IMG/VR virus record: IMGVR_UViG_3300023223_000144
Location: 1 to 42,750 of that record
Origin: a virus
DNA: 42,750 nt
Direction: 5' to 3' (one strand)
Shown here one piece after another: positions 18,327 to 29,889 of the stretch. Each line of letters begins with the position of its first letter. The stretch's first letter is position 1. The notes under the pieces are model-generated. The model was not told the DNA's origin. It searched no databases and saw only the letters and a program-made list of their open reading frames with translations. A program made the translations under genes and the position numbers.

Positions 18327-18542
18327 TCAATTCCTTTTACAATCCCCGCATCTGACTTCATCAATATCTGCTGTATGGCAAACCCTGCATTCAATTGAAC
18401 CATAATATTCATACCCATTCGACCACGGTCCTTCTTCGCCACAATAGGAACATTTCCAAACTCGCACCGGCCCACCAACATCACATTCTACATCTATCAT
18501 CCGAGAGTGGTCATCCATAGTTTTATGGGTGCAGTCGCTCAT
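18327..18542 (-). CDS. zinc-ribbon protein, last gene of the leftward cluster
   Basis: This 71-aa protein carries four metal-binding pairs: a Cys-His near the start (CTHK), CSYCG at about 31-35, CRVC at about 52-55 and CGDC at about 65-68. It probably folds as a zinc ribbon. The start is tagged ATGAGCG like many leftward genes. One base separates it from the previous stop. Function is unknown. Confidence 0.6.
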   Translation of the reverse strand: MSDCTHKTMDDHSRMIDVECDVGGPVRVWKCSYCGEEGPWSNGYEYYGSIECRVCHTADIDEVRCGDCKRN

Positions 18543-18543
18543 C

Positions 18544-18663
18544 CTAAAATAACCACTTCGCTAATTCCCATCCGATCCATGTTCCAATTTCCCAACACAC
18601 AACAGATATAGCAAACACTAAGGCAAAATCTTTAAATCCAGTAATTTGTGGGTTATCGCTCAT
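18544..18663 (-). CDS. 39-aa single-pass membrane peptide
   Basis: I chose ATG 18663 because GGAGGAAGGG lies about 8 bases upstream and the start carries the ATGAGCG tag; longer frames lack a ribosome site. The product has one membrane segment (FALVFAISVVCWEIGTWIGW, about 14-33). It overlaps the upstream HTH gene by 11 bases. Function is unknown. Confidence 0.55.
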   Translation of the reverse strand: MSDNPQITGFKDFALVFAISVVCWEIGTWIGWELAKWLF

Positions 18664-18844
18664 CTTGTTTCCCTTCCTCCCCAAACAACCAAACCATAAC
18701 CTTAATCGTGGCCTGTTGGTCAATATTCTTGCCACCCTCAAGCCGTGAAAGCGTCTTAGCCGGGATACTAATATCAGCCGCGATTGTCTTCTGGTCTTTG
18801 TCGCTGGTGGCCCGATGCAAGCGCATCATTTTGCTTATTATCAT
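18653..18844 (-). CDS. XRE-type helix-turn-helix protein
   Basis: This 63-aa protein has a HTH: DQKTIAADISIPAKTLSRLEGGKN (about 17-40), where the turn and LSRLEGG recognition helix are typical of Cro/C1-type repressors. It is nearly all DNA-binding domain. It lies at the distal end of the leftward cluster, with ATGA overlap to the gene before. Its target operator is unknown. Confidence 0.7.
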   Translation of the reverse strand: MIISKMMRLHRATSDKDQKTIAADISIPAKTLSRLEGGKNIDQQATIKVMVWLFGEEGKQDER

Positions 18845-19026
18845 TTAACTATCCTCTCAAACATACCTAATCGACCATCAATGCTCCCAATAAAACCTAA
18901 AAATTTCCATCCGTCCTTTTTTTTGCTGGTTACCCATAAAGAAAGATCACGTGCAAAGCCAGCCCTGACTTCGTTCCTTCCAACATAATCGGGCATTTCT
19001 TCAAAATAAATTTCTACTTTTTCCAT
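18841..19026 (-). CDS. hypothetical protein, 61 aa
   Basis: The small acidic/aromatic protein has beta-alpha character (VEIYFEEMPDY at the start, WKFLGFIGSIDGRLGMFERI at the end). TAGGAAAATATT provides a ribosome site. It is separated from the gene upstream by an 86-nt hairpin-bearing spacer and coupled by ATGA to the HTH gene downstream. No family was recognised. Confidence 0.5.
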   Translation of the reverse strand: MEKVEIYFEEMPDYVGRNEVRAGFARDLSLWVTSKKKDGWKFLGFIGSIDGRLGMFERIVK

Positions 19027-19053
19027 AATATTTTCCTATTAAATTAAAGGGAT

Positions 19054-19113
19054 GGGGAAGCGGTTGGAAGGAGGAAAAACCCGCTTCCCCGGCGCGGCGG
19101 ATAAGGACCGCGC
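19054..19113 (-). terminator. two consecutive hairpins in leftward cluster spacer
   Basis: A perfect 10-bp inverted repeat (19054-19063 with 19081-19090) lies beside a 6-bp GCGCGG/CCGCGC hairpin (19092-19113). A U-run is lacking, so this may be a processing or attenuation element and not a full terminator. A similar two-hairpin spacer lies at 19620-19706. Confidence 0.45.
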
Positions 19114-19595
19114 TATTCTTTTTTCTTGGTTGCGCTCAAAACATACCTCAAAATATCTTTGGTGTTATCGTCCATAGCGTCAATTGAACGGGCCAGTTCA
19201 GCAAGCTTTTCAGCACTATAAAGATTGAAACCATCTATAGTTTTTTTAAGGGTGTTAACGTCATCGGCAAACATACTTAATTGTTTAGACATGCCGGATA
19301 TTTTTTTGCGCTTTTCTGTGGTTTTTTCGTCTAAATCTTCCCACATTTTATAAAGAAGATCTTCTTCTTCTTGGTATATTTTCCTCATTTCTGTTCTGTG
19401 TGTTAAGCAGAAAGATTTGAATTTTAACACGTCGTCTTCAAGCATTTCATTTTCTCGGGTGATATCAAGCCGTTTTTTATTGATCACCTCTTTAGCTATA
19501 GACGCTTGAGCCTCAACGCTATCAGCAGCCTCAATTTTATTGGCTATTGAAACAGGTAAATATACGTGTCTTTTTTCTTCAAATTCGTTTGACAT
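19113..19595 (-). CDS. coiled-coil hypothetical protein
   Basis: This 160-aa, highly charged helical protein has a short beta start (KRHVYLPVSIANKIEAAD) and heptad-like helices through residues 30-125. There are no catalytic motifs or Cys clusters. It follows the NinB-like gene after a structured spacer, with AAGGATAAGATT as ribosome site, which is also found before 22649. It may be an accessory factor for recombination or replication; this is inferred only from neighbours. Confidence 0.5.
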   Translation of the reverse strand: MSNEFEEKRHVYLPVSIANKIEAADSVEAQASIAKEVINKKRLDITRENEMLEDDVLKFKSFCLTHRTEMRKIYQEEEDLLYKMWEDLDEKTTEKRKKISGMSKQLSMFADDVNTLKKTIDGFNLYSAEKLAELARSIDAMDDNTKDILRYVLSATKKKE

Positions 19596-19619
19596 AATCT
19601 TATCCTTGTTTTGTTGTTT

Positions 19620-19706
19620 AAATTAATGGTGGTGGACCGCGCTTGGGGGAGACACGGCCCACCGAGGCCGGAAGAAGGGGGAGGGTAAACTCCCGGCCTA
19701 TTCTTT
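19620..19706 (-). terminator. paired hairpins between recombination genes
   Basis: Read leftward, GGCCGG pairs with CCGGCC with an inner GGGAG/CTCCC stem, followed by a second stem GGTGGGCC/GGTCCACC with one G-U pair. The design parallels the 19054-19113 spacer, and the ten bases AGCGCGGTCC occur in both. There is no clear U-tract. It may be an attenuator, an RNA processing site, or a protein-binding element. Confidence 0.4.
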
Positions 19707-19707
19707 G

Positions 19708-20097
19708 TTAGTAATTTCTCTGCATATCTTCTGGGCGCGGCAGCATGACCGCGTGAAATGATGCACAATGCCTATCTATATGTTCAAGATATTCTGTAAA
19801 TTCCTTAACGGTTAATTTTTTTGTGGACTTGGCCTTTTCCTTTGCCACACCTTTAATGGTATAAAATTTAGGCGGTAAAAACATATCCATCATATCCTGG
19901 TGCCAGTCATCTGAGGAGCAACCTATTTCTTGCCCCATAATACCGTTCCATTTCCAGTATAAATTATTCTGTTGTAAAGTCCGGTTTTTAACAAATCGTT
20001 TAATCTTGATTTCCCACACAACAGTTAAATCAAGATTACAGATAAATTCAATAATTCTGGTTAAACTTGGCTTGTCTGATGTTCTAAATGTTGCCAT
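19708..20097 (-). CDS. ninB: NinB-like recombination protein
   Basis: This 129-aa protein starts at ATG 20097; the upstream in-frame extension only duplicates the HNH gene. Conserved blocks are WEIKIKRFVKNRTLQQNNLYW (about 30-50), the W-H-x-D-M followed by FLPP, and STKKLTVKEFTEYLEHIDRH. These match NinB/Orf, a lambda ninR recombination mediator that binds ssDNA and SSB. It overlaps the HNH gene by 14 bases within a recombination block. Confidence 0.85.
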   Translation of the reverse strand: MATFRTSDKPSLTRIIEFICNLDLTVVWEIKIKRFVKNRTLQQNNLYWKWNGIMGQEIGCSSDDWHQDMMDMFLPPKFYTIKGVAKEKAKSTKKLTVKEFTEYLEHIDRHCASFHAVMLPRPEDMQRNY

Positions 20098-20395
20098 TAT
20101 CTTCCCAATCTTTCCAGAGTTTAATTGACATATCAATAGCGTATAATGCGCCCATTTTCCCAAAGTATTTAATCTCAGACCCCACATCATGTAGGGCGCG
20201 GTGGTGATCATTGCACATCGGTATTGTCCGGTTGTCCCCTAACTTCCGACCCGTCCCTCTGTATTCGCCGGGGAACTTCAACAAATGGTGAGGAGCCACG
20301 GCACCCAGGGTATGGCATTCAATACACGGCAGCTCTGATACGTGCTTTAAGTATGCCTTGTCCTCAATTCGTGGGTGCTTAGGGCAAAGGGTCAT
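20084..20395 (-). CDS. HNH-type nuclease (DUF968/Ref-like)
   Basis: This 103-aa protein begins at ATG 20395, in ATGA overlap with the previous stop. The zinc/HNH pattern is C-I-E-C at about 24-27, then AVAPHHLL, GTGRKLGDNRTIPMCNDHHRALH. The spacing resembles DUF968 and Ref-like phage nucleases, which process recombination intermediates. It is adjacent to ninB, as in lambdoid nin regions. Confidence 0.8.
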   Translation of the reverse strand: MTLCPKHPRIEDKAYLKHVSELPCIECHTLGAVAPHHLLKFPGEYRGTGRKLGDNRTIPMCNDHHRALHDVGSEIKYFGKMGALYAIDMSIKLWKDWEDNGNI

Positions 20396-20592
20396 CCTAT
20401 TCCATCCGTACGAATTACAGGAACAGCACATAAGTCAATCCGCTTTGGCAGTCGATTGGCGTGAAACTCCAAGATAGCCTCCCGGTCCCGTGGGTTAATG
20501 CTTAAGCGTGTCAGGATTCCTCTATCGTAGGCATTAAGGTTTTCCGTGTGCATGAGCCGGTATAGGTTGATAGCGAGGGTTATATATTTCAT
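20392..20592 (-). CDS. hypothetical protein, 66 aa
   Basis: The small basic helical protein (MKYITLAINLYRLMHTENLNAYDRGILTRL) has no motif that I recognise. ATGA overlaps on both sides place it firmly between the annealing protein and the HNH nuclease, suggesting an accessory function in recombination. Confidence 0.5.
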   Translation of the reverse strand: MKYITLAINLYRLMHTENLNAYDRGILTRLSINPRDREAILEFHANRLPKRIDLCAVPVIRTDGIG

Positions 20593-21299
20593 GGTGTGTC
20601 TCCTGTTGCTTCTGGCAGACCGAATGGGTCATCATCGCCGGGGAACGAGCCTATGCGTATGGCTGCGGCATCTCTTAATTCCATTACTCGTTTGAACGTT
20701 TTTGGCATTAATTCCTCAGCCTGTTCAAGCATGGCCTTGCTATCTTTAATTAGCCCGTCAAGAAATTGTAGATTGTCTTTAGCGGTTAATTTATTCATTT
20801 CGATAACAAGGTCTTTCAAACCTTGCTGGATTTCTTCTTTGTTAATTCCTCCGCTTTCTTTTCTAACTTCTTCCTTACGTTCTTCAACATATTTTACATC
20901 ATCAAAGCATCCCATAAAAATATCAGCATTGAAACCGAGTTTGGAAAGCCCTTTGGTTAAAGCATCAGTTTCCACTTTTTTTGCAAAGTCCTGATCTGGT
21001 TTAGTTCGCGCATTATCCCTATAAACAGAGATAGATGAACCTATAGGAAATTCACCATTAGGGAAAAAGAAAACCCCCTTGAATACTAAAATACCCGTCT
21101 CCGAAACAAGAGTATAATCATATTCAAACGATTTCCACCCCCATGCAACGCCATATACCCCCCACTGTTCGGTCGCCGCCATTATTTGTGTTTGAGGGGC
21201 AACAGATGTTATTTGGTTGCCCCGGACATTAGAATTTTTAGTGTTAGCCGGGTTTGTCTTACAAACAGCATTCCATAACTTCATATTGTCGTCCGTCAT
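20589..21299 (-). CDS. ssDNA annealing protein, Rad52/Sak-like
   Basis: This 236-aa protein has a N-terminal beta/alpha domain with ATEQWGVYGVAWGW (about 42-55) and the diagnostic block VETDALTKGLSKLGFNADIF (about 108-127), followed by MGCFDDVKYV. This resembles the Rad52-superfamily (Sak-type) phage recombinases, in which 'TDALKKALSxLG' precedes a short acidic motif. The C-terminus is helical and ends in an acidic DDDPFGLPE tail, a common interaction tail. It lies beside ninB, HNH and nuclease genes. Confidence 0.7.
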   Translation of the reverse strand: MTDDNMKLWNAVCKTNPANTKNSNVRGNQITSVAPQTQIMAATEQWGVYGVAWGWKSFEYDYTLVSETGILVFKGVFFFPNGEFPIGSSISVYRDNARTKPDQDFAKKVETDALTKGLSKLGFNADIFMGCFDDVKYVEERKEEVRKESGGINKEEIQQGLKDLVIEMNKLTAKDNLQFLDGLIKDSKAMLEQAEELMPKTFKRVMELRDAAAIRIGSFPGDDDPFGLPEATGDTP

Positions 21300-21991
21300 T
21301 TTGCTACCTTTCTCGGTGAAATCTCACATCCTGGAATTGTCCGTATTCCAGACCTAACGTCTTGCTTTGCCAGACCCTCGGCATACTGCACAAGCGCATA
21401 GTTTTGGGTTGACCAATAATGCCTTAGCATTGCAACGGAATCTGTAACTTCAATATCCCATACTGTACGCATGCCCTTGACGTTATCCTTGCTGATCGCC
21501 TTGGCCTTGGCGGTTGCTTTTTGTGCGGCTTTTAAAAGCTTTTCGGCTTCTTCACGTTCTTCAAGACTCGCGGCCCTGATAGCCTCTTGTGCTTTGCGTT
21601 CTTTTTCGTCAGCTATGGCGCGGGCCTTGCGGGCCTCTTCATCCTTTTCGGCTTGCACTTTTTGCTTCCAAGGGGTGACGGTATCAAGACAAGCCCGTAA
21701 GGCAAGAGGAGCCTTTCCCGTAACGCCTTTGGTATCGGCTATCAGCGGGGCATACTTAGCCTGTACAGCCTTCTTACCTTCATCAAATGGCGTGTTCTCA
21801 TACTTGCGGTGTTCCTCGGCCTTTTTAGCCGCAGCCTTAATCATGCTGATTAGCTTGTCGATCTGGTCGGCTTGGCCTTGTGTTTCAATAGGCTCGCCGT
21901 CAATCCATTGTTTAGCCGCTTCATAAAGGTCGTTGATTTCTTTTTCAACAATCTCAAATTCGTTAGGCGGGTTATTATGTCCTTCAGCCAT
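21296..21991 (-). CDS. conserved coiled-coil protein of alphaproteobacterial phages
   Basis: This 231-aa protein begins MAEGHNNPP, an opening I associate with phages and prophages of Alphaproteobacteria. It then has WIDGEPIETQGQADQIDKLI and a long Ala/Glu/Lys coiled coil (about 85-165), and a final globular part. It is coupled to the annealing protein by ATGA, so a role with ssDNA or annealing is likely. The catalytic function is unknown. Confidence 0.65.
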   Translation of the reverse strand: MAEGHNNPPNEFEIVEKEINDLYEAAKQWIDGEPIETQGQADQIDKLISMIKAAAKKAEEHRKYENTPFDEGKKAVQAKYAPLIADTKGVTGKAPLALRACLDTVTPWKQKVQAEKDEEARKARAIADEKERKAQEAIRAASLEEREEAEKLLKAAQKATAKAKAISKDNVKGMRTVWDIEVTDSVAMLRHYWSTQNYALVQYAEGLAKQDVRSGIRTIPGCEISPRKVAK

Positions 21992-21992
21992 C

Positions 21993-22136
21993 TTAATATC
22001 CTTTCACCAATCCAAAAGCCTCACCAATATACCACGCTGCGGGAAATCCAATATAAAACATCACTGCGATGCACAAGCTCCCGGCTAAGTATTTCAATAC
22101 ATCCCTGTTGCGTATTTTATGCCCGTTGATGTTCAT
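21993..22136 (-). CDS. 47-aa membrane peptide
   Basis: This short gene encodes a basic N-terminus followed by one hydrophobic span (YLAGSLCIAVMFYIGFPAAW, about 16-35). Its start overlaps the nuclease stop (ATGA), and the next ATG lies 1 base after its stop; the next gene's ribosome site is inside it. This spacing supports that it is a real gene despite its size. Function is unknown. Confidence 0.55.
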   Translation of the reverse strand: MNINGHKIRNRDVLKYLAGSLCIAVMFYIGFPAAWYIGEAFGLVKGY

Positions 22137-22396
22137 CTGATTTCCCCGAAATGTTGTGAAAAGAACCATGCCGCTTCCATCCCTTGAATTGCTATGATAT
22201 TTTTCACCCGTGACATTTGTTCGTCAATTCTCGCACTGTGAAACCGCTTGCATTCGATATATACACCGCTATCCGGCAGGTAAAAGCCTAAGCCATTTGT
22301 CCCGCCTTGGCTGTCGTGTATAAATTCAATGTCGTTAGCGCACAATGCCCCGGCAATCACTTTCTCTACAGGATCGGTTATTCTTGTTCTGTTCAT
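22133..22396 (-). CDS. PD-(D/E)XK-like nuclease
   Basis: This 87-aa protein starts at ATG 22396 with AAGGAATTGAT upstream. It shows a minimal nuclease core: an N-terminal helix with a Glu, GLGFYLPDSGVYIECKRFHS with Asp42, Glu48 and Lys50 in D-x(5)-E-x-K spacing, and a downstream helix starting at Gln60. This is the fold used by VRR-NUC and Holliday-junction resolvase-like enzymes. It sits in the recombination block. Confidence 0.6.
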   Translation of the reverse strand: MNRTRITDPVEKVIAGALCANDIEFIHDSQGGTNGLGFYLPDSGVYIECKRFHSARIDEQMSRVKNIIAIQGMEAAWFFSQHFGEIR

Positions 22397-22397
22397 A

Positions 22398-22649: not shown

Positions 22650-22696
22650 AATCTTATCCTTTTAGATTTGAGAGATTTTCCGTTCCCTTGATTTTA

Positions 22697-22725: not shown

Positions 22726-22733
22726 CAACAAAC

Positions 22734-22762: not shown

Positions 22763-22795
22763 GTCCGTGTTAGAAACATTTAAGGAAAGAACGCT

Positions 22796-23008: not shown

Positions 23009-23012
23009 TGGG

Positions 23013-23550: not shown

Positions 23551-23718
23551 TTAGGGCTGGTTTGATGTTGTGAGTTTATTATTCGTTTGTTCTGGTGTGG
23601 CAACGCTTTTATCACATTCACGGCATATAAGATTGCTAACAACTTTATCATCGCGGGATAATTTCTTGCCACATTTATTACAGGCATACGCGCTCGTTTC
23701 TTTTGTTTCAATTGACAT
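23551..23718 (-). CDS. zinc-ribbon protein, 55 aa
   Basis: ATG 23718 has GGAGG 9 bases upstream. The protein has the zinc knuckles CNKCG (about 13-17) and CREC (about 32-35) within TSAYACNKCGKKLSRDDKVV. It is clearly related to the N-terminal domain encoded at 26479 (same T-S-x-Y-x-C-N-x-C-G and R-x-D-K-V-V pattern). The ACGAGCG tag encodes its Thr-Ser at residues 8-9. It overlaps DUF1643 by 11 bases. A shifted frame on the same strand is open but has no such pattern. Confidence 0.65.
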   Translation of the reverse strand: MSIETKETSAYACNKCGKKLSRDDKVVSNLICRECDKSVATPEQTNNKLTTSNQP

Positions 23719-24217
23719 AACGAAAAGCCTCCAATGGTGTATCTGATTTAAGGTAAAGGGGGTGCTTGGGATGGCCTTGTTTTGTCACACCAAGGCAATA
23801 AACAGGCAACATGATTCCGTTGCACATATTCATAAAATTATGCGCCTGTTCTTTTGCAAACCTGTTAGCACCCCAAGCACATACAATCGGCTTGCCAGTG
23901 ACTTTTGAGCGATGGGCATATGAGTTCAACACCTTATCATTGCCATGCATGGGGTCTAAGTGTTTCGATAATTCAGCGGGGTCGGTGGCCCGTAAAGCGA
24001 AAAGATTAATGACCATAATGCCATCATAACCTTCGCGCTTTGCAAAACTCACACAACGGCGAATAGTGGGGTCGTCTTCTTTGGCATCCGCTGTTGATGG
24101 GTTCAGCATACAAAAAATCATTAAATTTTCGACATTTTCACCCCACACGCGCGTCAGCGTATAACGGTATTTGTCGCAAAGTGATATGTATGCATCGTTA
24201 ACCTTATACCCGCTCAT
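23708..24217 (-). CDS. DUF1643 family protein
   Basis: This 169-aa protein has the DUF1643 hallmarks: LMIFCMLNPSTADAKEDDPT (about 32-51), IRRCVSFAKREGYDGIMVIN, LFALRATDPAEL and later VCAWGANRF. DUF1643 proteins are widespread in phages and bacteria, but I know of no assigned activity. The start carries ATGAGCG and overlaps the preceding stop. The family is clear, the function is not. Confidence 0.88.
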   Translation of the reverse strand: MSGYKVNDAYISLCDKYRYTLTRVWGENVENLMIFCMLNPSTADAKEDDPTIRRCVSFAKREGYDGIMVINLFALRATDPAELSKHLDPMHGNDKVLNSYAHRSKVTGKPIVCAWGANRFAKEQAHNFMNMCNGIMLPVYCLGVTKQGHPKHPLYLKSDTPLEAFRYVN

Positions 24218-24229
24218 TTGTTTTGCTCC
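24211..24229 (-). repeat. junction repeat J1, copy 1
   Basis: A 19-nt sequence (leftward GGAGCAAAACAAATGAGCG) covers the end of one gene, its ribosome site and the start of the next. Copies with one or two changes lie at 24802-24820 and 25754-25772, where the flanking genes are unrelated. Confidence 0.75.
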
Positions 24230-24381
24230 ACTTCTTTATGGTTATCGTCAAGAAACACTGCTAGCTTCATCAGCCCAGTAAGAACTAGATTTATTCTAGT
24301 TTCCGTCATATTTCCTTGGTTCTTGGCGTCATCAAAATAATTAAATGCTGACTGTAGATGTTCATTGTTCCAATCGCTCAT
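24214..24381 (-). CDS. hypothetical protein, 55 aa
   Basis: ATG 24381 (ATGAGCG) is preceded by AGGAGTTCAACTTAA and overlaps the upstream stop (ATGA); the stop overlaps the DUF1643 start in the same way. The protein is an acidic helical product (MSDWNNEHLQSAFNYFDDAK) ending VEQNK. That ending is shared at DNA level with the ends of two unrelated genes (see the repeats). No family was recognised. Confidence 0.55.
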   Translation of the reverse strand: MSDWNNEHLQSAFNYFDDAKNQGNMTETRINLVLTGLMKLAVFLDDNHKEVEQNK

Positions 24382-24617
24382 TTAAGTTGAACTCCTATTT
24401 CTCTTATCAAATCATTAGCAGCTTTTAAATCTTGTCCTAAGTTTTTATTGTCGATGACAAGTTGTTCAATCTGCCCCACCACATCACACAAACTCGCCTG
24501 TTGTGCCGCACCATCTTCACCGTTGATGATAACATCAATTTTGCGAACCAACCGCTGACGGTCTTTGAACGTCTCTTCATAATCTTCAATGGTTAAATCG
24601 CTCGTTTGTTTTGTCAT
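24378..24617 (-). CDS. coiled-coil hypothetical protein, 79 aa
   Basis: The protein is helical and charged (DYEETFKDRQRLVRKIDVII near the start, a Gln/Asn-rich second half). ATGA overlaps occur at both ends. The N-terminus MTKQTSD contains the ACGAGCG tag at codons 5-7 and not at the start codon. No enzyme motif is present. Confidence 0.5.
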   Translation of the reverse strand: MTKQTSDLTIEDYEETFKDRQRLVRKIDVIINGEDGAAQQASLCDVVGQIEQLVIDNKNLGQDLKAANDLIREIGVQLK

Positions 24618-24808
24618 GGGTTTACCTTCTCAATATCGAAAAGTTCGGTTATGTCAAATTCATCAATTAGGTCGTTTGCAGTCTCATTGCCAAATTCAGC
24701 AGCAACACTTCTGAGAACAGAACCAACTATGTTATTTGAATAAGGGCCGTCCGTCACGATAGCCTTGGTTATACTTATCCTTGCTTTTTCCATTGTCATT
24801 TCGCTCAT
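24614..24808 (-). CDS. hypothetical protein, 64 aa
   Basis: The start is ATGAGCG, preceded by the J1 repeat with GGAG as ribosome site. The product is helical with an acidic C-terminus (LIDEFDITELFDIEKV). There are no Cys and no membrane segment. ATGA overlaps join it to both neighbours. No family was recognised. Confidence 0.5.
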   Translation of the reverse strand: MSEMTMEKARISITKAIVTDGPYSNNIVGSVLRSVAAEFGNETANDLIDEFDITELFDIEKVNP

Positions 24809-24820
24809 TTGTCTTGCTCC
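24802..24820 (-). repeat. junction repeat J1, copy 2
   Basis: It reads leftward GGAGCAAGACAAATGAGCG, one base different from copy 1. It encodes the LEQDK end of the upstream protein and the MSE start of the downstream one. Confidence 0.75.
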
Positions 24821-25035
24821 AGTTCTCTTTTGTATTTGTTAATGTCCCGTCTAATATTTTTCAACCAGTCGTTAAGTTCTGCCATGTGTCTTTCATGCGA
24901 AGCTATGGCTTTTTGTTTGACTTGCCAGATATGAAGAAATTGAGCCTCTACCATATAAGGCATCAGTCGCTCACGCTCTTCTTTGGGTAGGTCATTCCAT
25001 AAATGTGAAAAATTTCCAGTCGGTATATTAATCAT
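24805..25035 (-). CDS. hypothetical protein, paralogue of 29886-30143
   Basis: This 76-aa helical protein shares a strong pattern with the gene at 29886: M-I-N-x-P opening, H-x-W-N-D, then LHIWQVKQ-x-A-I-x-x-H and M-x-E-L-x-x-W-x-x-N-I-R. The conserved Trp and His positions suggest a specific fold. AGGAAGCTTTTGAG upstream contains the ribosome site. The two copies are 5 kb apart, so this looks like duplication or repeated acquisition of a cassette. Confidence 0.6.
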   Translation of the reverse strand: MINIPTGNFSHLWNDLPKEERERLMPYMVEAQFLHIWQVKQKAIASHERHMAELNDWLKNIRRDINKYKRELEQDK

Positions 25036-25253
25036 CTCAAAAGCTTCCTATCTTCTTCAAGTTCAGATGCAAATCTTCCATGCCATTTATGAAGATCAAC
25101 ACGATTAAGTACAAATGCCATATTTTCAGTTTGTCTAATTAAAGCTCTTTGAAGACGGTCAATCTCATCGGCCGCATCTTCTAGCATACGAACAAGGGGA
25201 CCATAATTTTCTTTTTTAGCATCGCGCCTTAAGGCTTTGATCAAATCGCTCAT
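25032..25253 (-). CDS. hypothetical helical protein, 73 aa
   Basis: I chose ATG 25253 (ATGAGCG), one base after the upstream stop, with GGAAAATTGAT ahead; an in-frame ATG at 25271 lies within the previous gene and arises from the J2 repeat. The protein is helical (SDLIKALRRDAKKENYGPL, then an acidic/hydrophobic helix DAADEIDRLQRALIRQTENM). This layout suggests a coiled coil. No family was recognised. Confidence 0.5.
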   Translation of the reverse strand: MSDLIKALRRDAKKENYGPLVRMLEDAADEIDRLQRALIRQTENMAFVLNRVDLHKWHGRFASELEEDRKLLR

Positions 25254-25271
25254 ATCAATTTTCCAATTCAT
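25247..25271 (-). repeat. junction repeat J2, copy 1
   Basis: A 25-nt sequence spans the end of one gene (encoding ...ELEN-stop) and the ATGAGCG start of the next. It matches 26169-26193 at 24 of 25 positions although the genes on either side differ. Confidence 0.8.
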
Positions 25272-25551
25272 CGTGGTTCCTGGCTGTTTCTGATGCGTCC
25301 AATATCATCTGTGCCAACTCTTCAATGCTGTACTTTTTTCTCTCATCTTCTGGTCTTGAAATTACATCTTTAGGGTCGGCGTACCATCCAGATCCGCCCC
25401 AATTATTGGGATTAGATGCAAAAAAGAACTCCCCATGTTCCCCGTCCCAAAGGACAACCCATACGGAGTTACCTTCTGGTGTGTTGGCAATGTGTTTTCT
25501 ATGACCTCTACTGCCTTCTTCAAATCTTTTCCATTTACCGCTCGTCTTCAT
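25255..25551 (-). CDS. hypothetical protein, 98 aa
   Basis: The protein opens MKTSGKWKRFEEGSRGHRKH with the ACGAGCG tag at codons 3-5. A Trp/Gly-rich middle (VWVVLWDGEHGEFFFASNPNNWGGSGWYAD) suggests a compact beta domain, followed by a helix. It ends ELEN, encoded in the J2 repeat. ATGA overlap with the previous gene. No family was recognised. Confidence 0.5.
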   Translation of the reverse strand: MKTSGKWKRFEEGSRGHRKHIANTPEGNSVWVVLWDGEHGEFFFASNPNNWGGSGWYADPKDVISRPEDERKKYSIEELAQMILDASETARNHDELEN

Positions 25552-25760
25552 ATTTCAATTCCTTCTGGCGGGTCAATTCTTTTCCAGTGAGTAGGCACGG
25601 CTTCTTTGTTTAGTATACTGTGACAGTGCCACTTCCCATTATCATGATGTCCTGTTGACGCCCCGTAAGGCGGAACCCATAAAAGAACACGCTCGCTCAT
25701 TGTTCCACAGTGAAGGGTGCGCCCTTCGGGTGCTGTTTCAATCGGTTGCCAATCGCTCAT
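25548..25760 (-). CDS. DUF551-like protein
   Basis: This 70-aa protein begins MSDWQPIETAPEGRTLHCG, close to the W-x-P-I-x-T-A-P opening of the DUF551 phage family. The C-terminal part has a W-x-x-I/P motif (PTHWKRIDPPEG), also usual in DUF551. The family is common in phage early regions without known function. It starts with the J1 repeat and an ATGAGCG tag. Confidence 0.7.
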   Translation of the reverse strand: MSDWQPIETAPEGRTLHCGTMSERVLLWVPPYGASTGHHDNGKWHCHSILNKEAVPTHWKRIDPPEGIEI

Positions 25761-25772
25761 TAGTCTTGCTCC
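25754..25772 (-). repeat. junction repeat J1, copy 3
   Basis: It reads leftward GGAGCAAGACTAATGAGCG, one change from copy 2. The change creates a TAA one codon earlier in the upstream gene, giving ...VEQD-stop. Confidence 0.75.
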
Positions 25773-25981
25773 ACAATTGATGAAAGAACACTTTCAAAAC
25801 ATAAAAAATCTTCATGCTCCTGTACTTGGCTTTTAATTTTCTCCACGGCTTGTTCTTCTGTCATGTTTACCGACTTAATAGAATGGAGAGCGTGGCCATG
25901 ATCAATAAAATGCCCTTCGCTTAATGGCTTTATGGCAAACACAACAGACACAAATATAGTTTTACGTTTCTTGCTCGTCAT
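25760..25981 (-). CDS. hypothetical protein, 73 aa
   Basis: The product starts MTSKKRKTIFVSVVFAIKPL, a basic end followed by a beta strand, and then a helix (TEEQAVEKIKSQVQEHEDF). A strong ribosome site, CAGGAGGCC, precedes it. The tag is present with one mismatch (ACGAGCA). TAATG overlap joins it to DUF551. No family was recognised. Confidence 0.5.
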   Translation of the reverse strand: MTSKKRKTIFVSVVFAIKPLSEGHFIDHGHALHSIKSVNMTEEQAVEKIKSQVQEHEDFLCFESVLSSIVEQD

Positions 25982-26175
25982 AATTGGCCTCCTGATTTGA
26001 AATATTCACAACGTCCATGAGCTTGTACTTCAATATCGCATACCATATTAAATTTGCATATATACTTAATTCCAGGGCTTATAACGTGGACACATCGAGC
26101 GCAGTTATCCGGCTTTGATTGGGTGTATCCCATCTTTTTTAGTAACAGTTCTTCTAATTTCTTCAATTCGCTCAT
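25978..26175 (-). CDS. Cys-rich small protein, 65 aa
   Basis: I chose ATG 26175 (ATGAGCG) next to the upstream stop, as at 25253. The protein has a helical N-terminus and then CARCVHV, YICKFNMVCD and GRCEYF, giving five Cys that could bind zinc or an iron-sulphur cluster. ATGA overlap to the next gene. The related start context (J2) is shared with an unrelated protein. Confidence 0.5.
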   Translation of the reverse strand: MSELKKLEELLLKKMGYTQSKPDNCARCVHVISPGIKYICKFNMVCDIEVQAHGRCEYFKSGGQL

Positions 26176-26193
26176 ATTAATTTTCCAATTCAT
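26169..26193 (-). repeat. junction repeat J2, copy 2
   Basis: This is the second 25-nt copy, with one substitution relative to 25247-25271. It again spans an ELEN-stop gene end and an ATGAGCG gene start. Confidence 0.8.
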
Positions 26194-26479
26194 GTTTTAA
26201 AATATCAAGTATGCGGACCACATTGTCCAGTTGTTCGCTTGATGCCTCTAAATCGCTTTTGATAACTGGCACGGTCGTGCATTCCGCGCTTGCGTTTAAA
26301 ACTGCCCTTACGACACGGATTGAATTTTTCATTTGATTAATTTTATCTATCGCGCTCATGTTACTTTCCTTCATATTTGTGCATTTTAAACAAAACTTAT
26401 TGTCTACAACCTTATCTTTACGGGTTAATCTTATGCCACAAAAATTGCAGTGATATCCGCTCGTTTTAATTTTTGTCAT
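26177..26479 (-). CDS. zinc-ribbon plus helical domain, likely fused cassettes
   Basis: From ATG 26479 (ATGA overlap) the 100-aa frame has two parts. Residues 1-36 form a zinc ribbon (TSGYHCNFCG, then CLKC) related to the protein at 23551. Residues 41 onward form a helical domain starting MSAIDKINQMKNSI. The second part has its own AAGGAAAGTAAC ribosome site and ATGAGCG start (26359), as for a stand-alone gene. It may be a fusion after loss of a stop, or two products from one frame. Confidence 0.6.
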   Translation of the reverse strand: MTKIKTSGYHCNFCGIRLTRKDKVVDNKFCLKCTNMKESNMSAIDKINQMKNSIRVVRAVLNASAECTTVPVIKSDLEASSEQLDNVVRILDILKHELEN

Positions 26480-26703
26480 GTTTTGCACCTCCACAAACGA
26501 TATCCGTCTTTGACTTTTCTGCTTGTAGGCCTATATTTCAATCTTCGCATTGCCGCAGAAATTCTGTCTCGTTCTTTTTGGTCGCAAGTAAGGATGCTGT
26601 CACCAATTTTCATTTCACCCAGCATATCAAGCAAGGGCGAATATCTGCCGGTTAGTGGCATCGGGATATTTTTATCAATTTTAAATTTCTTAAAATCGCT
26701 CAT
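26476..26703 (-). CDS. hypothetical DNA-binding-like protein, 75 aa
   Basis: The protein starts MSDFKKFKIDKNIPMPLTGRY, then MKIGDSILTCDQKERDRISAAMRRLKYRPTSRK. The 'K-x-G-D-S-I' plus 'R-x-R-I-S-A-A-M-R-R' combination is common in small phage regulators with a helix that may bind DNA. The start is ATGAGCG after CAGGAGG. This assignment is by layout only. Confidence 0.5.
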   Translation of the reverse strand: MSDFKKFKIDKNIPMPLTGRYSPLLDMLGEMKIGDSILTCDQKERDRISAAMRRLKYRPTSRKVKDGYRLWRCKT

Positions 26704-26927
26704 TTAATATCCTCCTGAACTGAAACTTTGACTGCCCGCGCCTGCTTGTAATCACGAAGCCAACGCCAATGAAGATCACGCTCATGAGCCGTTACCCATG
26801 ACGAACAATCCTTATCAAGAAACGCTTTAATAGCGGCGCGGCGAGTGGGGTTGATTGTATGTGGCAGGATCTTAAAATTTGGTCCATCTCGCCTTTTCAC
26901 AACCCACATTTGAAGTTTTTTGCTCAT
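26700..26927 (-). CDS. hypothetical basic protein, 75 aa
   Basis: I chose ATG 26927 (ATGAGCA) since GGAGGACGG lies upstream. The product is basic, with Trp-rich helices (MWVVKRRDGP; HERDLHWRWLRDYKQ). The high positive charge suggests nucleic acid or membrane binding. ATGA overlap leads to the next gene. No family was recognised. Confidence 0.5.
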   Translation of the reverse strand: MSKKLQMWVVKRRDGPNFKILPHTINPTRRAAIKAFLDKDCSSWVTAHERDLHWRWLRDYKQARAVKVSVQEDIK

Positions 26928-26928
26928 T

Positions 26929-27186
26929 TTAACCGTCCTCCAAATTGAAAGTTTTATTTTTAAAATATTCAAGAGTATTGGATAATGCCGCGAACATTAT
27001 TAGGTTATGATCGCCCTCGCTGATGTCCCCGCCGATAGAGTTTTCAGAAGTAACCCATGAAATCGCCACTGATTTTAGTTCTCCGGACTTTGCTCGCTCA
27101 AGTGCAAGTTCAAGCATTTCAACAGCATCACCATTAAGTCCAGGCCTTAACGGGATAATCTTAAAATCGTCGCTCGTTTGTGTCAT
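26929..27186 (-). CDS. hypothetical acidic protein, 85 aa
   Basis: ATG 27186 has GGAGATATGAA upstream and lies 1 base after the upstream stop. MTQTSDDFKII carries the ACGAGCG tag at codons 4-6. Then come VEMLELALERAKSGELKSVA and a beta/alpha region. The pattern 'A-V-x-M-L-E-x-A-L-E-x-A-K-S-G-E-L-x-S-V-A' occurs in many small phage proteins of unknown function. Confidence 0.55.
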   Translation of the reverse strand: MTQTSDDFKIIPLRPGLNGDAVEMLELALERAKSGELKSVAISWVTSENSIGGDISEGDHNLIMFAALSNTLEYFKNKTFNLEDG

Positions 27187-27187
27187 T

Positions 27188-27361
27188 TCATATCTCCACG
27201 TTTTTAAGGGCATATTCTATGCATTGCGCCGCTACAGCAGACACAGTTAAATCATAGTTCTTTGCAAGAGATTCTAATCTGAGCTTATCGGCTCGGGCCA
27301 CTTTTGCTGAAATTATAACCTTTTCGTTTTTAGGTCTTTTTACCTTCCATCCGCTCGTCAT
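27188..27361 (-). CDS. ribbon-helix-helix-like DNA-binding protein, 57 aa
   Basis: The gene encodes MTSGWKVKRPKNEKVIISAK, then VARADKLRLESLAKNYDLTVS and AVAAQCIEYALKNVEI. A beta strand (KVIISAKV) followed by two helices is the CopG/Arc ribbon-helix-helix layout. It starts in the J3 repeat with the ACGAGCG tag and ends one base before the next ATG. A local transcription factor is likely, although the operator is unknown. Confidence 0.6.
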   Translation of the reverse strand: MTSGWKVKRPKNEKVIISAKVARADKLRLESLAKNYDLTVSAVAAQCIEYALKNVEI

Positions 27362-27370
27362 AATATTTCA
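27352..27370 (-). repeat. junction repeat J3, copy 1
   Basis: A 19-nt sequence, leftward TGAAATATTATGACGAGCG, is identical to 28985-29003. Here it is read as the ...SEIL-stop end of the upstream gene plus the MTS start; in the other copy the first TGA is the upstream stop and AATATT is intergenic. Confidence 0.85.
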
Positions 27371-27600
27371 CTTTCTGAAACTTCGCCATAAGCATCAAGA
27401 GCTAGACGTATTCCCATCTTTCTTTCTTCACTGGTTAATTGGTGCTTTAAAACCATCCTTGCCGATCCTGCCTTTCGCGTTGATTTGACATCTCGCCACA
27501 ACATGCCGTAAGCCATTATCATTGCTTCCTTGGGTGACATTGCTTTCAATTCCGCTTCGTAGGCCTCACCAGCCATGTCTATTGCATCCTGTACGCTCAT
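27358..27600 (-). CDS. hypothetical helical protein, 80 aa
   Basis: It starts MSVQDAIDMAGEAYEAELKAMSPKEAMIMA from an ATGAGCG tag and is all-helical, with a basic middle (RDVKSTRKAGSARMVLKHQL). It is joined by TAATG to the gene before and ATGA to the RHH gene after. No family was recognised. Confidence 0.5.
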   Translation of the reverse strand: MSVQDAIDMAGEAYEAELKAMSPKEAMIMAYGMLWRDVKSTRKAGSARMVLKHQLTSEERKMGIRLALDAYGEVSESEIL

Positions 27601-27761
27601 TAAAAATTCCCATAACTTCTGTTGTCTTGTTGAAAATGTTTACGTTCGGCCTCTCGCTGCATTACCTCGCGCTTGTAGCTGTCCCAAGTATTAACTTCCT
27701 TTTGGCATTCATTAATTATCCGCTCTAGCCATTCAGCATTTCCGCTCCTTTGATTTGTCAT
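27600..27761 (-). CDS. hypothetical charged protein, 53 aa
   Basis: The frame encodes MTNQRSGNAEWLERIINECQ followed by a Glu/Lys/Arg/Gln-rich helix (YKREVMQREAERKHFQQ). ATG 27761 has AAGGATTATTGAT upstream and overlaps the previous stop by ATGA; its own stop shares a base with the next ATG. AGGAGCG, a near match of the tag, encodes R-S-G at codons 5-7. Confidence 0.55.
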   Translation of the reverse strand: MTNQRSGNAEWLERIINECQKEVNTWDSYKREVMQREAERKHFQQDNRSYGNF

Positions 27762-28249
27762 ATCAATAATCCTTGTTGCGGCACTAAAAGGCTTGCCAGT
27801 TTCTCAATAAGTTTGTGCGGGTGCTTTGGCCATATACTTATAAATGGGATATTAGTGCCGCGCTCTTTACATGCGGTGCGTAACTCTTCCATATAGATGC
27901 CGCTTGGCTGGTATGGGTTCTTGCCACCAAAATTAGTTCCACAAGCCGGGGATGTTGTAACTCCGATAACTGCGAATGCACCAAATTTGACTATCTTATC
28001 AGCTTCATATTGCGCTATAACGGCGCAATGATCACGAAACCCCGTCAGTTCATTGTAGTATTTTCGTCCGTGTGGTTTCCGGTCCGGGCCACTAAACTCA
28101 GTTTCTGGGCAACGCATGGGCATAAGTTTAATATCGTTCCCCCGTGACCACTGGATAAGCGGAGGCGCAAGATAGGCCTCTTCTGTCGGCGGTTTTGCCA
28201 TAAGGCTGGGGCAATAGAAACACCCTGACGTAAAGACGTAACGGCTCAT
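27758..28249 (-). CDS. TudS/DUF523-like putative Fe-S protein
   Basis: This 163-aa protein has a Cys pair near the start (GCFYC, residues 10-13), MPMRCPETEFSGPDRKPHGR (about 43-62) and VIGVTTSPACGTNFGG (about 93-108). The order 'CPE...G..R' then 'SPxCG' is the core of DUF523 proteins, which include the [4Fe-4S] 2-thiouracil desulfurase TudS. Residues between form alpha/beta segments. It may desulfurate or otherwise handle modified bases. The start lies in junction repeat J4 (ATGAGCC). Confidence 0.6.
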   Translation of the reverse strand: MSRYVFTSGCFYCPSLMAKPPTEEAYLAPPLIQWSRGNDIKLMPMRCPETEFSGPDRKPHGRKYYNELTGFRDHCAVIAQYEADKIVKFGAFAVIGVTTSPACGTNFGGKNPYQPSGIYMEELRTACKERGTNIPFISIWPKHPHKLIEKLASLLVPQQGLLI

Positions 28250-28262
28250 CTTCGAGTTTCCT
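28244..28262 (-). repeat. junction repeat J4, copy 1
   Basis: A 19-nt sequence, leftward AGGAAACTCGAAGATGAGC, encodes the ETRR-stop end of one gene and the ATGAGC start of the next. The copy at 29506-29524 differs at one base. Confidence 0.75.
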
Positions 28263-28434
28263 TTTCATATATTACAAATTCACTTATTTTATGTTTTCCA
28301 CATCGAGGACAATCAAAATCTACCGCTGCCATTTCTGCCATGACTTGTGAAACAAAATGGCCACACTCAGGGCAGTTTCTAGTTGAAACTTTGTCAACGG
28401 GAATTGTCTCTACGCTCGTTAAAACATCACTCAT
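28246..28434 (-). CDS. zinc-ribbon protein, 62 aa
   Basis: ATG 28434 has CAGGAGTTTC upstream. The protein has CPECGHF (about 21-27) and CPRCGKHK (about 42-49), a classical two-knuckle zinc ribbon, and ends in ETRR. The ACGAGCG tag encodes T-S at codons 6-7 (MSDVLTSV). Longer upstream frames are in the neighbour and lack a ribosome site. It overlaps that neighbour by 8 bases. Confidence 0.6.
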   Translation of the reverse strand: MSDVLTSVETIPVDKVSTRNCPECGHFVSQVMAEMAAVDFDCPRCGKHKISEFVIYEKETRR

Positions 28435-28795
28435 GATTTGAAACTCCTGTACCATTACAAGCAGGGCATTCTTTGCTGCCATCGCTAAAATCTCCAGAAC
28501 CTCCGCAAGATTTACAGGACAAACTATCAAGATGTTTCTGCCTATTTGCGTCAATATCCTCAAGAATTTTCATTGCTTCTTCTCTCCATTTATCCCCGTG
28601 TTTGTCGAGTAAATTAGAGGTCCAATGAATAACCACAGCTTGCTCATATTCAGATTTAGGACCGCCGTCTGCATATAGTCCCGCCGCAATAAGCATGTGA
28701 GCTATTTCACGACAACAAAAATTAGGTCTACCAAATATAATTATTTGAGTTTTAGTTAGGGTGATCGTTTCGCTCGTTTGTTTTATGTTAGTCAT
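28427..28795 (-). CDS. DnaJ-type zinc-finger protein, 122 aa
   Basis: The N-terminal two thirds are helical (IIIFGRPNFCCREIAHMLIA, EAMKILEDIDANRQ). The C-terminus has CKSCGGSGDFSDGSKECPAC followed by NGTG, i.e. two C-x-x-C-x-G-x-G repeats as in the DnaJ zinc domain and anti-TRAP-like proteins. The tag ACGAGCG lies at codons 7-9 (KQTSE). It may bind protein or RNA. The preceding gene is a pseudogene. Confidence 0.6.
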   Translation of the reverse strand: MTNIKQTSETITLTKTQIIIFGRPNFCCREIAHMLIAAGLYADGGPKSEYEQAVVIHWTSNLLDKHGDKWREEAMKILEDIDANRQKHLDSLSCKSCGGSGDFSDGSKECPACNGTGVSNHE

Positions 28796-28994
28796 TATGA
28801 AAACCTTTCAGAAATTGTTTAATTTCTTCTTGAAGATCACCAGCAAAAAGTCCGGTTCCTGTTCCTTCTTTTTCAGAAACATGCTTGAGATAATTCATTA
28901 ATATTTTTTTCTCAATAACAAGTGCGTTTTTTTCCTCAAGCAAGCTATTCGCTTTACCCGCTCAATATTCTACTTGATCAAATTCGCTCGTCAT
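28788..28994 (-). pseudogene. small gene with an in-frame TGA at codon 11
   Basis: From ATG 28994 (J3 repeat, ACGAGCG tag) the frame reads MTSEFDQVEY, then TGA (28962-28964), then continues for 57 open codons with coding-like composition (AGKANSLLEEKNALVIEKKI; EGTGTGLFAGDLQEEIKQFL) to a TAA that overlaps the next gene. TGG in place of TGA would restore a 68-aa protein. A nonsense mutation, readthrough or an internal start are all possible. Confidence 0.6.
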
Positions 28995-29003
28995 AATATT
29001 TCA
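28985..29003 (-). repeat. junction repeat J3, copy 2
   Basis: It is identical over 19 nt to 27352-27370. The upstream gene here ends at the TGA that begins the repeat, so the same DNA serves as stop plus spacer. Confidence 0.85.
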
Positions 29004-29192
29004 CAACCTTTCTATGAAGTAGATAAATGATTTCCATTTCTTAGTTATTCTTTCCCAAATTGGTATCGGGAACTTAAACTCTGAACAATGCTTGCACTCG
29101 AAATACCTATCATTGCCATCTGAGTTTAAAGCCACGAAAAATATCTTTGGTGCGACCCATGAATGAAAGCCAAATTTACAAAGAATGCTCAT
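29001..29192 (-). CDS. hypothetical Cys/His protein, 63 aa
   Basis: The product has CKFGFHSW at the start and FECKHCSEFK in the middle, so a zinc site of two Cys pairs plus His is possible. The C-terminus is aromatic and basic (WERITKKWKSFIYFIERL). It starts with ATGAGCA and overlaps the previous stop. No family beyond a general zinc-ribbon type. Confidence 0.5.
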   Translation of the reverse strand: MSILCKFGFHSWVAPKIFFVALNSDGNDRYFECKHCSEFKFPIPIWERITKKWKSFIYFIERL

Positions 29193-29323
29193 TTGTTTTC
29201 CTTCAAAATATTTTTCAAAAATTTCTTAGCTAACCGCTTTGTTCTAAAATAAAGGAAGGGTTCGCCGTATAGCAGAATTTTATAACCTCGGGCGGATTTG
29301 GCTATGGTGTATGTATCGCTCAT
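29189..29323 (-). CDS. basic peptide, 44 aa
   Basis: ATG 29323 (ATGAGCG) overlaps the upstream stop, and the stop overlaps the next start (both ATGA). The protein is basic (MSDTYTIAKSARGYKILLYG; RTKRLAKKFLKNILKENK) with a beta then amphipathic helix layout. It could bind nucleic acid or membrane. No family was recognised. Confidence 0.5.
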   Translation of the reverse strand: MSDTYTIAKSARGYKILLYGEPFLYFRTKRLAKKFLKNILKENK

Positions 29324-29511
29324 AAGTGTAACTTTCTCTTTTGGAGTTTCCGTTGTCTTTTCGCCTCAGCTTTGGACATAGCAAGTTGATCTATGGGGTT
29401 ACTTGGGTCTTTAGGTGGCTTAGTTCTTGTCGGCACCACGCTATGCACATCGCCCATTTCACCGAGCATCCCTAACATTACCCATGCGGCCACATTGACT
29501 TTCGCGCTCAT
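29320..29511 (-). CDS. hypothetical protein, 63 aa
   Basis: A hydrophobic N-terminus (VNVAAWVMLGMLGEMG) is followed by a Pro-rich linker (RTKPPKDPSNP) and a very basic tail (AKRQRKLQKRKL). The start is in junction repeat J4 (ATGAGCG). The combination might be membrane-tethered, but the hydrophobic stretch is short. No family was recognised. Confidence 0.5.
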   Translation of the reverse strand: MSAKVNVAAWVMLGMLGEMGDVHSVVPTRTKPPKDPSNPIDQLAMSKAEAKRQRKLQKRKLHL

Positions 29512-29524
29512 CTCCGAGTTTCCT
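29506..29524 (-). repeat. junction repeat J4, copy 2
   Basis: Leftward AGGAAACTCGGAGATGAGC, 18 of 19 identical to 28244-28262. It supplies the ETRR-stop gene end and the following start in a different gene pair. Confidence 0.75.
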
Positions 29525-29663
29525 GTTCTTCATCTGACTTCATATTTTTCCATCCTATATCACGTAGCCATTTCGGGAGTTCGTAAAATCTCTTTTCAGA
29601 TTCCTTGAATTGCTCTACTATCCACGGGGCAAGTTTCAATTTTATGCTCGTTTCATTTGCCAT
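29508..29663 (-). CDS. hypothetical protein, 51 aa
   Basis: The frame encodes MANETSIKLKLAPWIVEQFK, then ELPKWLRDIGWKNM and an acidic/basic ETRR tail. ATG 29663 lies inside the 3' end of the gene before, with TAGGAAAGG as ribosome site; its stop overlaps the next start (ATGA). The tag occurs as ACGAGCA at codons 5-6. No family was recognised. Confidence 0.55.
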   Translation of the reverse strand: MANETSIKLKLAPWIVEQFKESEKRFYELPKWLRDIGWKNMKSDEEQETRR

Positions 29664-29889
29664 TTGATTTGACCTTTCCTATATAGGTAATCTCGCCGTT
29701 ATCCTGACAAAGATAAATTTCTTCACCATTAGCAACGCGCTCAAAGATAGAATTTAAATCGTCTTCAAAGGTTGATGCGCGACTTTTCCAAAGGGCCAGT
29801 TCCGCACGAAGTGTTACTAACTCAAGCTGTGAGGTAAAAGCGGAATCAAATACTGATCTTGGTTTACTAATGTTTACATGGCTCGTCAT
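29653..29889 (-). CDS. hypothetical coiled-coil protein, 78 aa
   Basis: The protein has a helical core (LELVTLRAELALWKSRASTF) and a beta ending (EIYLCQDNGEITYIGKV). The start codes MTS (ACGAGCC, a tag variant) and overlaps the previous stop. No family was recognised. Confidence 0.5.
   Translation of the reverse strand: MTSHVNISKPRSVFDSAFTSQLELVTLRAELALWKSRASTFEDDLNSIFERVANGEEIYLCQDNGEITYIGKVKSNGK

What the first reader, a model, noticed from the sequence alone, without database searches (positions are those of the whole stretch)
18537..29889. In-frame A(T/C)GAGCG tag at or near the start of most leftward small genes
I read at least 20 leftward genes in which ATGAGCG is the start codon context or ACGAGCG lies within the first ~12 codons, always in the same frame, encoding (M/T)-S-(D/E/G/A). 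Exact cases include starts at 18542, 18663, 23718, 24217, 24381, 24617, 24808, 25253, 25551, 25760, 26175, 26359, 26479, 26703, 27186, 27361, 27600, 28434, 28795, 28994, 29323 and 29511; near matches are at 25981, 26927, 27761, 28249, 29192, 29663 and 29889. The proteins are otherwise unrelated (zinc ribbons, RHH, DUF551, DUF1643). Neither codon bias nor the ribosome site explains a conserved 7-mer downstream of the start. It resembles the start-associated sequences of cluster K mycobacteriophages in concept and could be a recombination anchor, an RNA-binding target or a translational control site.
Basis: partly seen in the sequence, partly recalled or inferred. Interest (0 to 1): 0.9.

Follow-up and report, generated by a model that had tools for sequence, protein, structure and literature searches.

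The report
Shared start tag in phage genes
Nearly all of about 29 small, mostly unrelated genes in one block of a bacterial virus carry the same seven-letter sequence, either as their start signal or a few codons inside the gene in the same reading frame; it looks like a shared control or gene-joining site that acts on the nucleic acid rather than on the proteins.

Summary
AYGAGCG occurs 27 times in the window against 6.8 expected; 25 copies lie on one strand and 22 of them in one 6.4-kb leftward block. In that block 25 of 29 genes have AYGAGC in frame within the first 10 codons. Same-protein codon resampling gives a mean of 5.5 (maximum 14 in 20,000 runs). Thirteen genes use ATGAGC as the start itself; twelve carry ACGAGC at codons 2-8 behind a separate ATG that usually has a Shine-Dalgarno-like sequence, and no gene has both near its start. 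Codons at the tag are fixed (Thr ACG 12/12, background 13%; Ser AGC 25/25, background 18%) in mostly unrelated proteins, so the constraint is on DNA or RNA. Twelve other leftward genes lack it, so it belongs to a module, not to all leftward genes. Homologues in named phages lack it. Runs of ATGAGCG starts inside phage-specific junction repeats also occur in unrelated viral contigs; the repeated in-frame ACG form appeared only here. Best reading: a start-associated sequence, probably a translational control site, carried in duplicated gene-junction modules. The nearest known kind is the SAS of cluster K mycobacteriophages, but sequence and position differ. No close relative was found, so control site versus recombination boundary stays open.

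The parts
23551..30143 (-). Leftward block of about 28 small genes in which the tag sits (the untagged gene 30140-30709 precedes it)
   Evidence: 25 of 29 genes (counting 30709) with in-frame AYGAGC in the first 10 codons
29505..29511 (-). ATG-form tag, start of 29320-29511 (MSAK)
29317..29323 (-). ATG-form tag, start of 29189-29323 (MSDT)
29186..29192 (-). ATG-form, ATGAGCA, start of 29001-29192 (MSIL)
28243..28249 (-). ATG-form, ATGAGCC, start of 27758-28249 (MSRY)
27594..27600 (-). ATG-form tag, start of 27358-27600 (MSVQ)
26921..26927 (-). ATG-form, ATGAGCA, start of 26700-26927 (MSKK)
26697..26703 (-). ATG-form tag, start of 26476-26703 (MSDF)
26353..26359 (-). ATG-form tag inside the open frame 26177-26479 (codon 41); possible internal start or former gene start
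26169..26175 (-). ATG-form tag, start of 25978-26175 (MSEL)
25754..25760 (-). ATG-form tag, start of 25548-25760 (MSDWQPIETAP; DUF551-like by eye, no Pfam match)
25247..25253 (-). ATG-form tag, start of 25032-25253 (MSDL)
24802..24808 (-). ATG-form tag, start of 24614-24808 (MSEM)
24375..24381 (-). ATG-form tag, start of 24214-24381 (MSDW)
24211..24217 (-). ATG-form tag, start of 23708-24217 (DUF1643, MSGY)
18657..18663 (-). ATG-form tag, start of 18544-18663 (MSDN)
18536..18542 (-). ATG-form tag, start of 18327-18542 (MSDC)
29880..29886 (-). ACG-form, ACGAGCC, codon 2 of 29653-29889 (M-TSH)
29645..29651 (-). ACG-form, ACGAGCA, codon 5 of 29508-29663 (MANE-TSI)
28985..28991 (-). ACG-form tag, codon 2 of the frame from 28994 (M-TSE; TGA at codon 11)
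28771..28777 (-). ACG-form tag, codon 7 of 28427-28795 (MTNIKQ-TSE)
28413..28419 (-). ACG-form tag, codon 6 of 28246-28434 (MSDVL-TSV)
27743..27749 (-). Degenerate AGGAGCG, codon 5 of 27600-27761 (MTNQ-RSG)
27352..27358 (-). ACG-form tag, codon 2 of 27188-27361 (M-TSG)
27171..27177 (-). ACG-form tag, codon 4 of 26929-27186 (MTQ-TSD)
26458..26464 (-). ACG-form tag, codon 6 of 26177-26479 (MTKIK-TSG, zinc ribbon)
25972..25978 (-). ACG-form, ACGAGCA, codon 2 of 25760-25981 (M-TSK)
25539..25545 (-). ACG-form tag, codon 3 of 25255-25551 (MK-TSG)
24599..24605 (-). ACG-form tag, codon 5 of 24378-24617 (MTKQ-TSD)
23691..23697 (-). ACG-form tag, codon 8 of 23551-23718 (MSIETKE-TSA, zinc ribbon)
25247..25271 (-). 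Junction module ATGAATTGGAAAATTGAT+tag, paired with 26169-26193
   Evidence: upstream 22 nt match at 18 of 22
26169..26193 (-). Junction module ATGAATTGGAAAATTAAT+tag
24211..24230 (-). Junction module TGGAGCAAAACAA+tag (also at 24802-24821 and 25754-25773)
28985..29004 (-). Junction module GTGAAATATT-ATG+tag, 20 bp, also exactly at 27352-27371
28244..28261 (-). Junction module GGAAACTCGAAG+ATGAGC, paired with 29506-29523

Best explanation
The tag is a nucleic-acid-level start-associated sequence of one leftward accessory gene block. SHOWN: it is strand-specific; 25 of 29 genes carry it near the start; the ATG and ACG forms exclude each other near the start; the codons are fixed; it lies outside the conserved part of the proteins with known homologues that were checked; it is absent from neighbouring leftward genes. 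INFERRED (1): because it lies inside or just after the initiation region of mRNA, codons 1-8, it most likely acts on mRNA at translation initiation, as a target for a phage or host RNA-binding repressor, or for a small RNA whose 5'-CGCUCGU would pair with both forms (G-C with ACG, G-U with AUG). This would switch the block's genes together. INFERRED (2): the sequence was laid down as a start module (Shine-Dalgarno, start codon, AGCG) copied between gene junctions. The ACG form would be the same site pushed a few codons inward by in-frame codon insertions between ATG and the tag, which explains the frame lock.
For: Enrichment and strand bias. 25/29 against codon-matched mean 5.5, maximum 14/20,000. 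Thr at tag ACG 12/12 against 13/102; Ser AGC 25/25 against 24/131; 12 of 13 TS dipeptides in the first 12 residues are ACGAGC, 0 of 8 elsewhere. Zero of 12 ACG-form genes start ATGAGC against 13 of the other 17 (hypergeometric 2380/67,863,915 = 3.5e-5, my arithmetic). Upstream ATGs of the ACG forms mostly have Shine-Dalgarno-like sequences, so ACG itself is not the start. Weak extra positions fixed relative to the tag rather than the start: A at -18 in 22/27, A at -6 in 20/27, A/T at -2 in 26/27; shuffle P about 0.0006-0.001 for -18. Junction modules of about 18-25 nt shared by pairs or a triple of junctions whose flanking genes show no BLAST similarity. Only two paralogous pairs among these genes. 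Homologues of 23708-24217, 24378-24617 and 26929-27186 in named phages lack the tag. Best in-frame internal hexamer: 40% of window genes, at most 28% in 98 control loci, where the one case looked into (L051) is paralogy.
Against: No trans-acting factor is identified. No Rfam match in 17-33 kb. The window holds CGCTCRT only opposite the tags and opposite two rightward copies, so no phage-encoded small RNA candidate stands out. The tag is not clearly more unpaired than control 7-mers (0.50 against 0.46). RNA-binding alone does not predict that all 12 ACG forms are in frame; that needs the insertion history, for which there is no direct evidence. No close relative was found in the collections searched, so conservation across phages is untested.
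Confidence: 0.4

Rival explanations
1. Gene-boundary (cassette) sequence. The tag is the 3' end of short junction modules through which small genes are gained, lost and shuffled by the phage's own annealing-type recombination. Frame and letters are kept because any exchange at the tag then yields an intact gene on both sides.
For: Four classes of about 18-25-nt junction modules shared by junctions whose flanking genes show no BLAST similarity, with similarity ending at or just after the tag. The block is made of mostly unrelated accessory genes. Nearby genes include a NinB/Orf recombination mediator, a DUF968 protein with a weak RecA-dependent-nuclease match and 20589-21299, which resembles proteins annotated as exonuclease or single-strand-annealing protein in other phages. 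Other viral contigs show runs of unrelated small genes with phage-specific junction repeats ending in ATGAGCGA (L226, L130, L124). The frame lock is predicted. Short conserved boundary sequences are a published idea for phage mosaicism (PMC3029335).
Against: Only 7 bp is common to all junction classes, too short for ordinary homologous annealing, and no site-specific recombinase was found among the proteins searched (not every open frame was searched). No relative with swapped modules could be found.
Confidence: 0.3
2. Ordinary preference for a good start context (Shine-Dalgarno, ATG, AGC, acidic or small residue: MSD, MSE, MSG) plus inherited copies of a favoured start. No special factor and no special function.
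For: ATGAGC was the most frequent start hexamer in 15 of 98 control loci, though many of these loci were fetched by tag patterns. GGAGCAANACNAATGAGCG occurs in 38 viral stretches without a tag system. Runs of ATGAGCG starts occur elsewhere.
Against: It does not explain twelve ACG AGC pairs at codons 2-8 with no synonymous variant, their exclusion from ATGAGC-start genes, or the absence of the tag from 12 adjacent leftward genes.
Confidence: 0.2
3. Ribosome-dependent cleavage or pausing site: AYG-AGC-G is read in frame in the ribosome and marks these early mRNAs for inactivation, in the manner of RelE/RegB-type nucleases.
For: It predicts both the frame lock and the start-proximal position. T4 RegB, structurally related to RelE and YoeB, cuts early mRNAs in translation initiation regions (PMC3014915).
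Against: No nuclease of that kind was identified in the window by the family searches run. The known enzymes recognise triplets or GGAG rather than a 7-mer.
Confidence: 0.07

Closest known systems
Start-Associated Sequences (SAS/ESAS) of cluster K mycobacteriophages (PMC3203893; PMC12699233)
   Same: Short asymmetric sequence, one orientation, tied to starts of many unrelated non-structural genes, restricted to part of the genome, unknown function, translation suspected.
   Different: SAS is 13 bp (GGGATAGGAGCCC), 3-7 bp upstream of the start, contains the Shine-Dalgarno core and favours genes with intergenic gaps over 50 bp. Here the 7-mer is the start itself or lies 1-7 codons downstream in frame, has no Shine-Dalgarno core, and the genes mostly overlap or abut.
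Short conserved boundary sequences proposed for lambdoid phages (cited in PMC3029335; original details from my own knowledge)
   Same: Shared short sequences at junctions of small accessory genes, including the translation start.
   Different: Exchange at the junctions is not demonstrated here; only 7 bp is common to all junctions, and about half of the sites lie inside the coding sequence.
T4 RegA translational operators (PMC3014915)
   Same: One regulator could act on about 30 genes by a site overlapping the AUG.
   Different: RegA sites are A+U-rich and not a conserved 7-mer; none is described there as lying in frame several codons downstream. No RegA-like protein was identified here.
Small-RNA sites in the five-codon window (PMC7769764)
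   Same: Position, just at and after the start, where pairing blocks initiation.
   Different: No small RNA was found; a shared seed across about 27 genes of one phage block would be unusual.

Membership tests
Start-Associated Sequences (cluster K) | 13-bp consensus GGGATAGGAGCCC | tested here: not met
   The shared element is AYGAGCG; the only other strongly tag-fixed positions are single bases at -18, -6 and -2
Start-Associated Sequences (cluster K) | Located 3-7 bp upstream of the start codon | tested here: not met
   Tag is at the start codon or 3-21 nt downstream of it
Start-Associated Sequences (cluster K) | One orientation, tied to starts of many unrelated non-structural genes | tested here: met
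   25 of 27 on one strand; 25 of 29 genes in the block; proteins mostly unrelated
Start-Associated Sequences (cluster K) | Kept across related phages with different gene content | not testable with these tools
   No close relative found
Gene-boundary sequences (lambdoid type) | Junction sequences shared between junctions with unrelated flanking genes | tested here: met
   Four module classes
Gene-boundary sequences (lambdoid type) | Exchange or mosaic breakpoints at the sequence between phages | not testable with these tools
   Needs related genomes; none found
RegA-type translational operator | Cognate repressor encoded | tested here: inconclusive
   No RegA-like match in the Pfam and PHROGs searches run; most block proteins match nothing and not every open frame was searched
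RegA-type translational operator | Repression of translation in vivo or in vitro | not testable with these tools
   Needs experiment

The most novel reading that the evidence does not exclude
A frame-locked, dual-form start tag: one phage marks nearly every gene of an accessory block with a 7-mer that works either as the start (ATGAGCG) or as an in-frame codon pair just inside the gene (ACGAGCG), read in the context of the translating ribosome or used as a plug-in joint for new genes. No such in-frame form turned up in the few papers read here.
Probability: 0.3. Interest if true: 0.75.

Novelty: new variant of a known kind. Interest (0 to 1): 0.52.

Why it matters
Start-associated repeats in phages have been known since 2011 without an established mechanism. 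A case where synonymous codons are frozen inside many unrelated genes separates translation context from nucleic-acid recognition and can be tested with synonymous changes in a reporter. If it is a joint for adding genes, it would help show how phages assemble long runs of small accessory genes while keeping them translatable.

Tried and rejected
Close relatives: none by megablast or blastn, by early-gene, terminase or zinc-ribbon scans, or by capsid search of 398 genomes of one phylum at E<=1e-100, a strict cut-off. Relatives of the 20589-21299 protein in genomes (L178-L197) and the paralogue-family hits L013-L015 carry no tag enrichment at starts. Three-tag spacing scans brought mainly repeats and GC-rich coding chance; no locus had more than one gene with the ACG form. 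A junction-pattern scan found ordinary start contexts. L051 first looked like a second case (GACGAA at gene starts) but is largely a family of MTDEQIIE-type paralogues. ACG as the start codon: rejected, because each ACG-form gene has an in-frame upstream ATG, most with a Shine-Dalgarno-like sequence. Protein-level tag alone: rejected, because codons are fixed. tRNA, Rfam RNA and excess promoters or terminators: none. A match of ACGAGCG to a conserved 16S rRNA stretch, recalled from memory, was not tested and not used.
Full report
Observation. AYGAGCG occurs 27 times in the window against 6.8 expected, with none of 100 shuffles reaching it; 25 copies are on the minus strand. In the leftward block 23551-30709 I set 29 genes by hand from the open frames. 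Thirteen start with ATGAGC and twelve carry ACGAGC at codons 2-8, in frame, behind an ATG that in most cases has a Shine-Dalgarno-like sequence. One more has AGGAGCG. Three (30709, 30143, 25035) have none. No start-proximal copy is out of frame. Two further ATG-form genes lie at 18663 and 18542; the 12 leftward genes between them and the block have none.

It is not codon usage or protein sequence. Keeping the proteins and redrawing codons gives 5.5 tagged genes on average (maximum 14 in 20,000), and shuffling codon order gives 0.8, against 25 observed. At the tag Thr is always ACG (12/12; background 13/102) and Ser always AGC (25/25; background 24/131). Of 13 TS dipeptides near starts 12 are ACGAGC; of 8 elsewhere none is. 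The proteins are mostly unrelated: only two paralogous pairs, one of them untagged. The two forms exclude each other at starts (0 of 12 against 13 of 17), so each tagged gene has one copy near its start.

Extent. Relative to the tag, three upstream positions are also skewed: A at -18 (22/27), A at -6 (20/27), A or T at -2 (26/27). A composition-matched shuffle gives P = 0.0006 and a rotation null 0.001 for the strongest. The -18 skew is seen in both forms, so it follows the tag and not the start codon. This is weaker evidence than the 7-mer itself.

Junction modules. Several junctions share about 18-25 nt that include the end of the previous gene, the Shine-Dalgarno region, the start and the tag: TGGAGCAARACWA+ATGAGCG (24217, 24808, 25760), ATGAATTGGAAAATTRAT+ATGAGCGA (25253, 26175), GTGAAATATTATG+ACGAGCG (28994, 27361), GGAAACTCGRAG+ATGAGC (29511, 28249). 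The genes on either side show no BLAST similarity. These look like copied joints.

Comparison with other phages. Control loci show that runs of ATGAGCG starts are not unique: L226, L130 and L124 each have several small genes close together with a phage-specific junction repeat ending in ATGAGCG. These loci were fetched because they contain the tag, so their frequency cannot be judged. In the loci screened, none had more than one gene with the in-frame ACG form. Among 98 control loci the commonest in-frame internal hexamer near starts reached at most 28% of genes; in the window block it is 40%, and the one control looked into closely (L051) is explained by paralogues. Homologues of the DUF1643 protein, of 24378-24617 and of 26929-27186 in named phages begin differently and lack the 7-mer, so the tag belongs to this phage's leaders and not to the gene families.

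Interpretation. Start-proximal position, strand specificity, frozen synonymous codons and restriction to one block point to a nucleic-acid site used when these mRNAs start translation. This is inferred, not shown. The frame lock of the ACG form is best explained if the site began as the start codon and was pushed inward by in-frame codons, or if exchange at the tag must keep the frame. The first favours a control site, the second a recombination joint; without relatives the data do not decide, and I put 0.4 and 0.3 on them.

Known kinds. The nearest is the SAS of cluster K mycobacteriophages (PMC3203893): same idea, different sequence and position, so this is not a member. RegA operators (PMC3014915), small-RNA sites within the first five codons (PMC7769764) and phage boundary sequences (PMC3029335) are the mechanistic models.

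Noticed in passing
window 28788-28994 (-): The frame from 28994 reads MTSEFDQVEY, then an in-frame TGA, then AGKANSLLEEKNALVIEKK... to 28788: a broken gene, a sequencing error, or a 10-aa peptide with an in-frame restart (TTG at 28943).
   Followed up: partly
window 26177-26479 (-): Zinc-ribbon protein (paralogue of 23551-23718) continues in frame into a second part that begins with its own ATGAGCG tag at 26359; looks like two genes fused by loss of a stop.
   Followed up: partly
window 24805-25035 and 29886-30143 (-): Paralogous pair (51% identity), both without the tag; relatives with F(S/T)HLWND in L013, L014 and L015.
   Followed up: partly
L226 minus strand, 0-based offsets 27-1590 (about 9.8-11.4 kb of the locus); L130 plus strand, 6133-7732: Runs of six to seven small genes whose junctions share a phage-specific repeat (C-terminal codons, Shine-Dalgarno, ATGAGCG): independent cases of repeated gene-junction modules.
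   Followed up: partly
window 30140-30709 (-): First gene of the leftward block, 189 aa, without the tag and without a Pfam or PHROGs match; its C-terminal end looks helix-turn-helix-like by eye. Possible regulator of the block, untested.
   Followed up: no
window 31490-32380 (+): Radical SAM domain protein (phrog_9298, E=2.4e-15) just right of the repressor-like gene at 30801.
   Followed up: no
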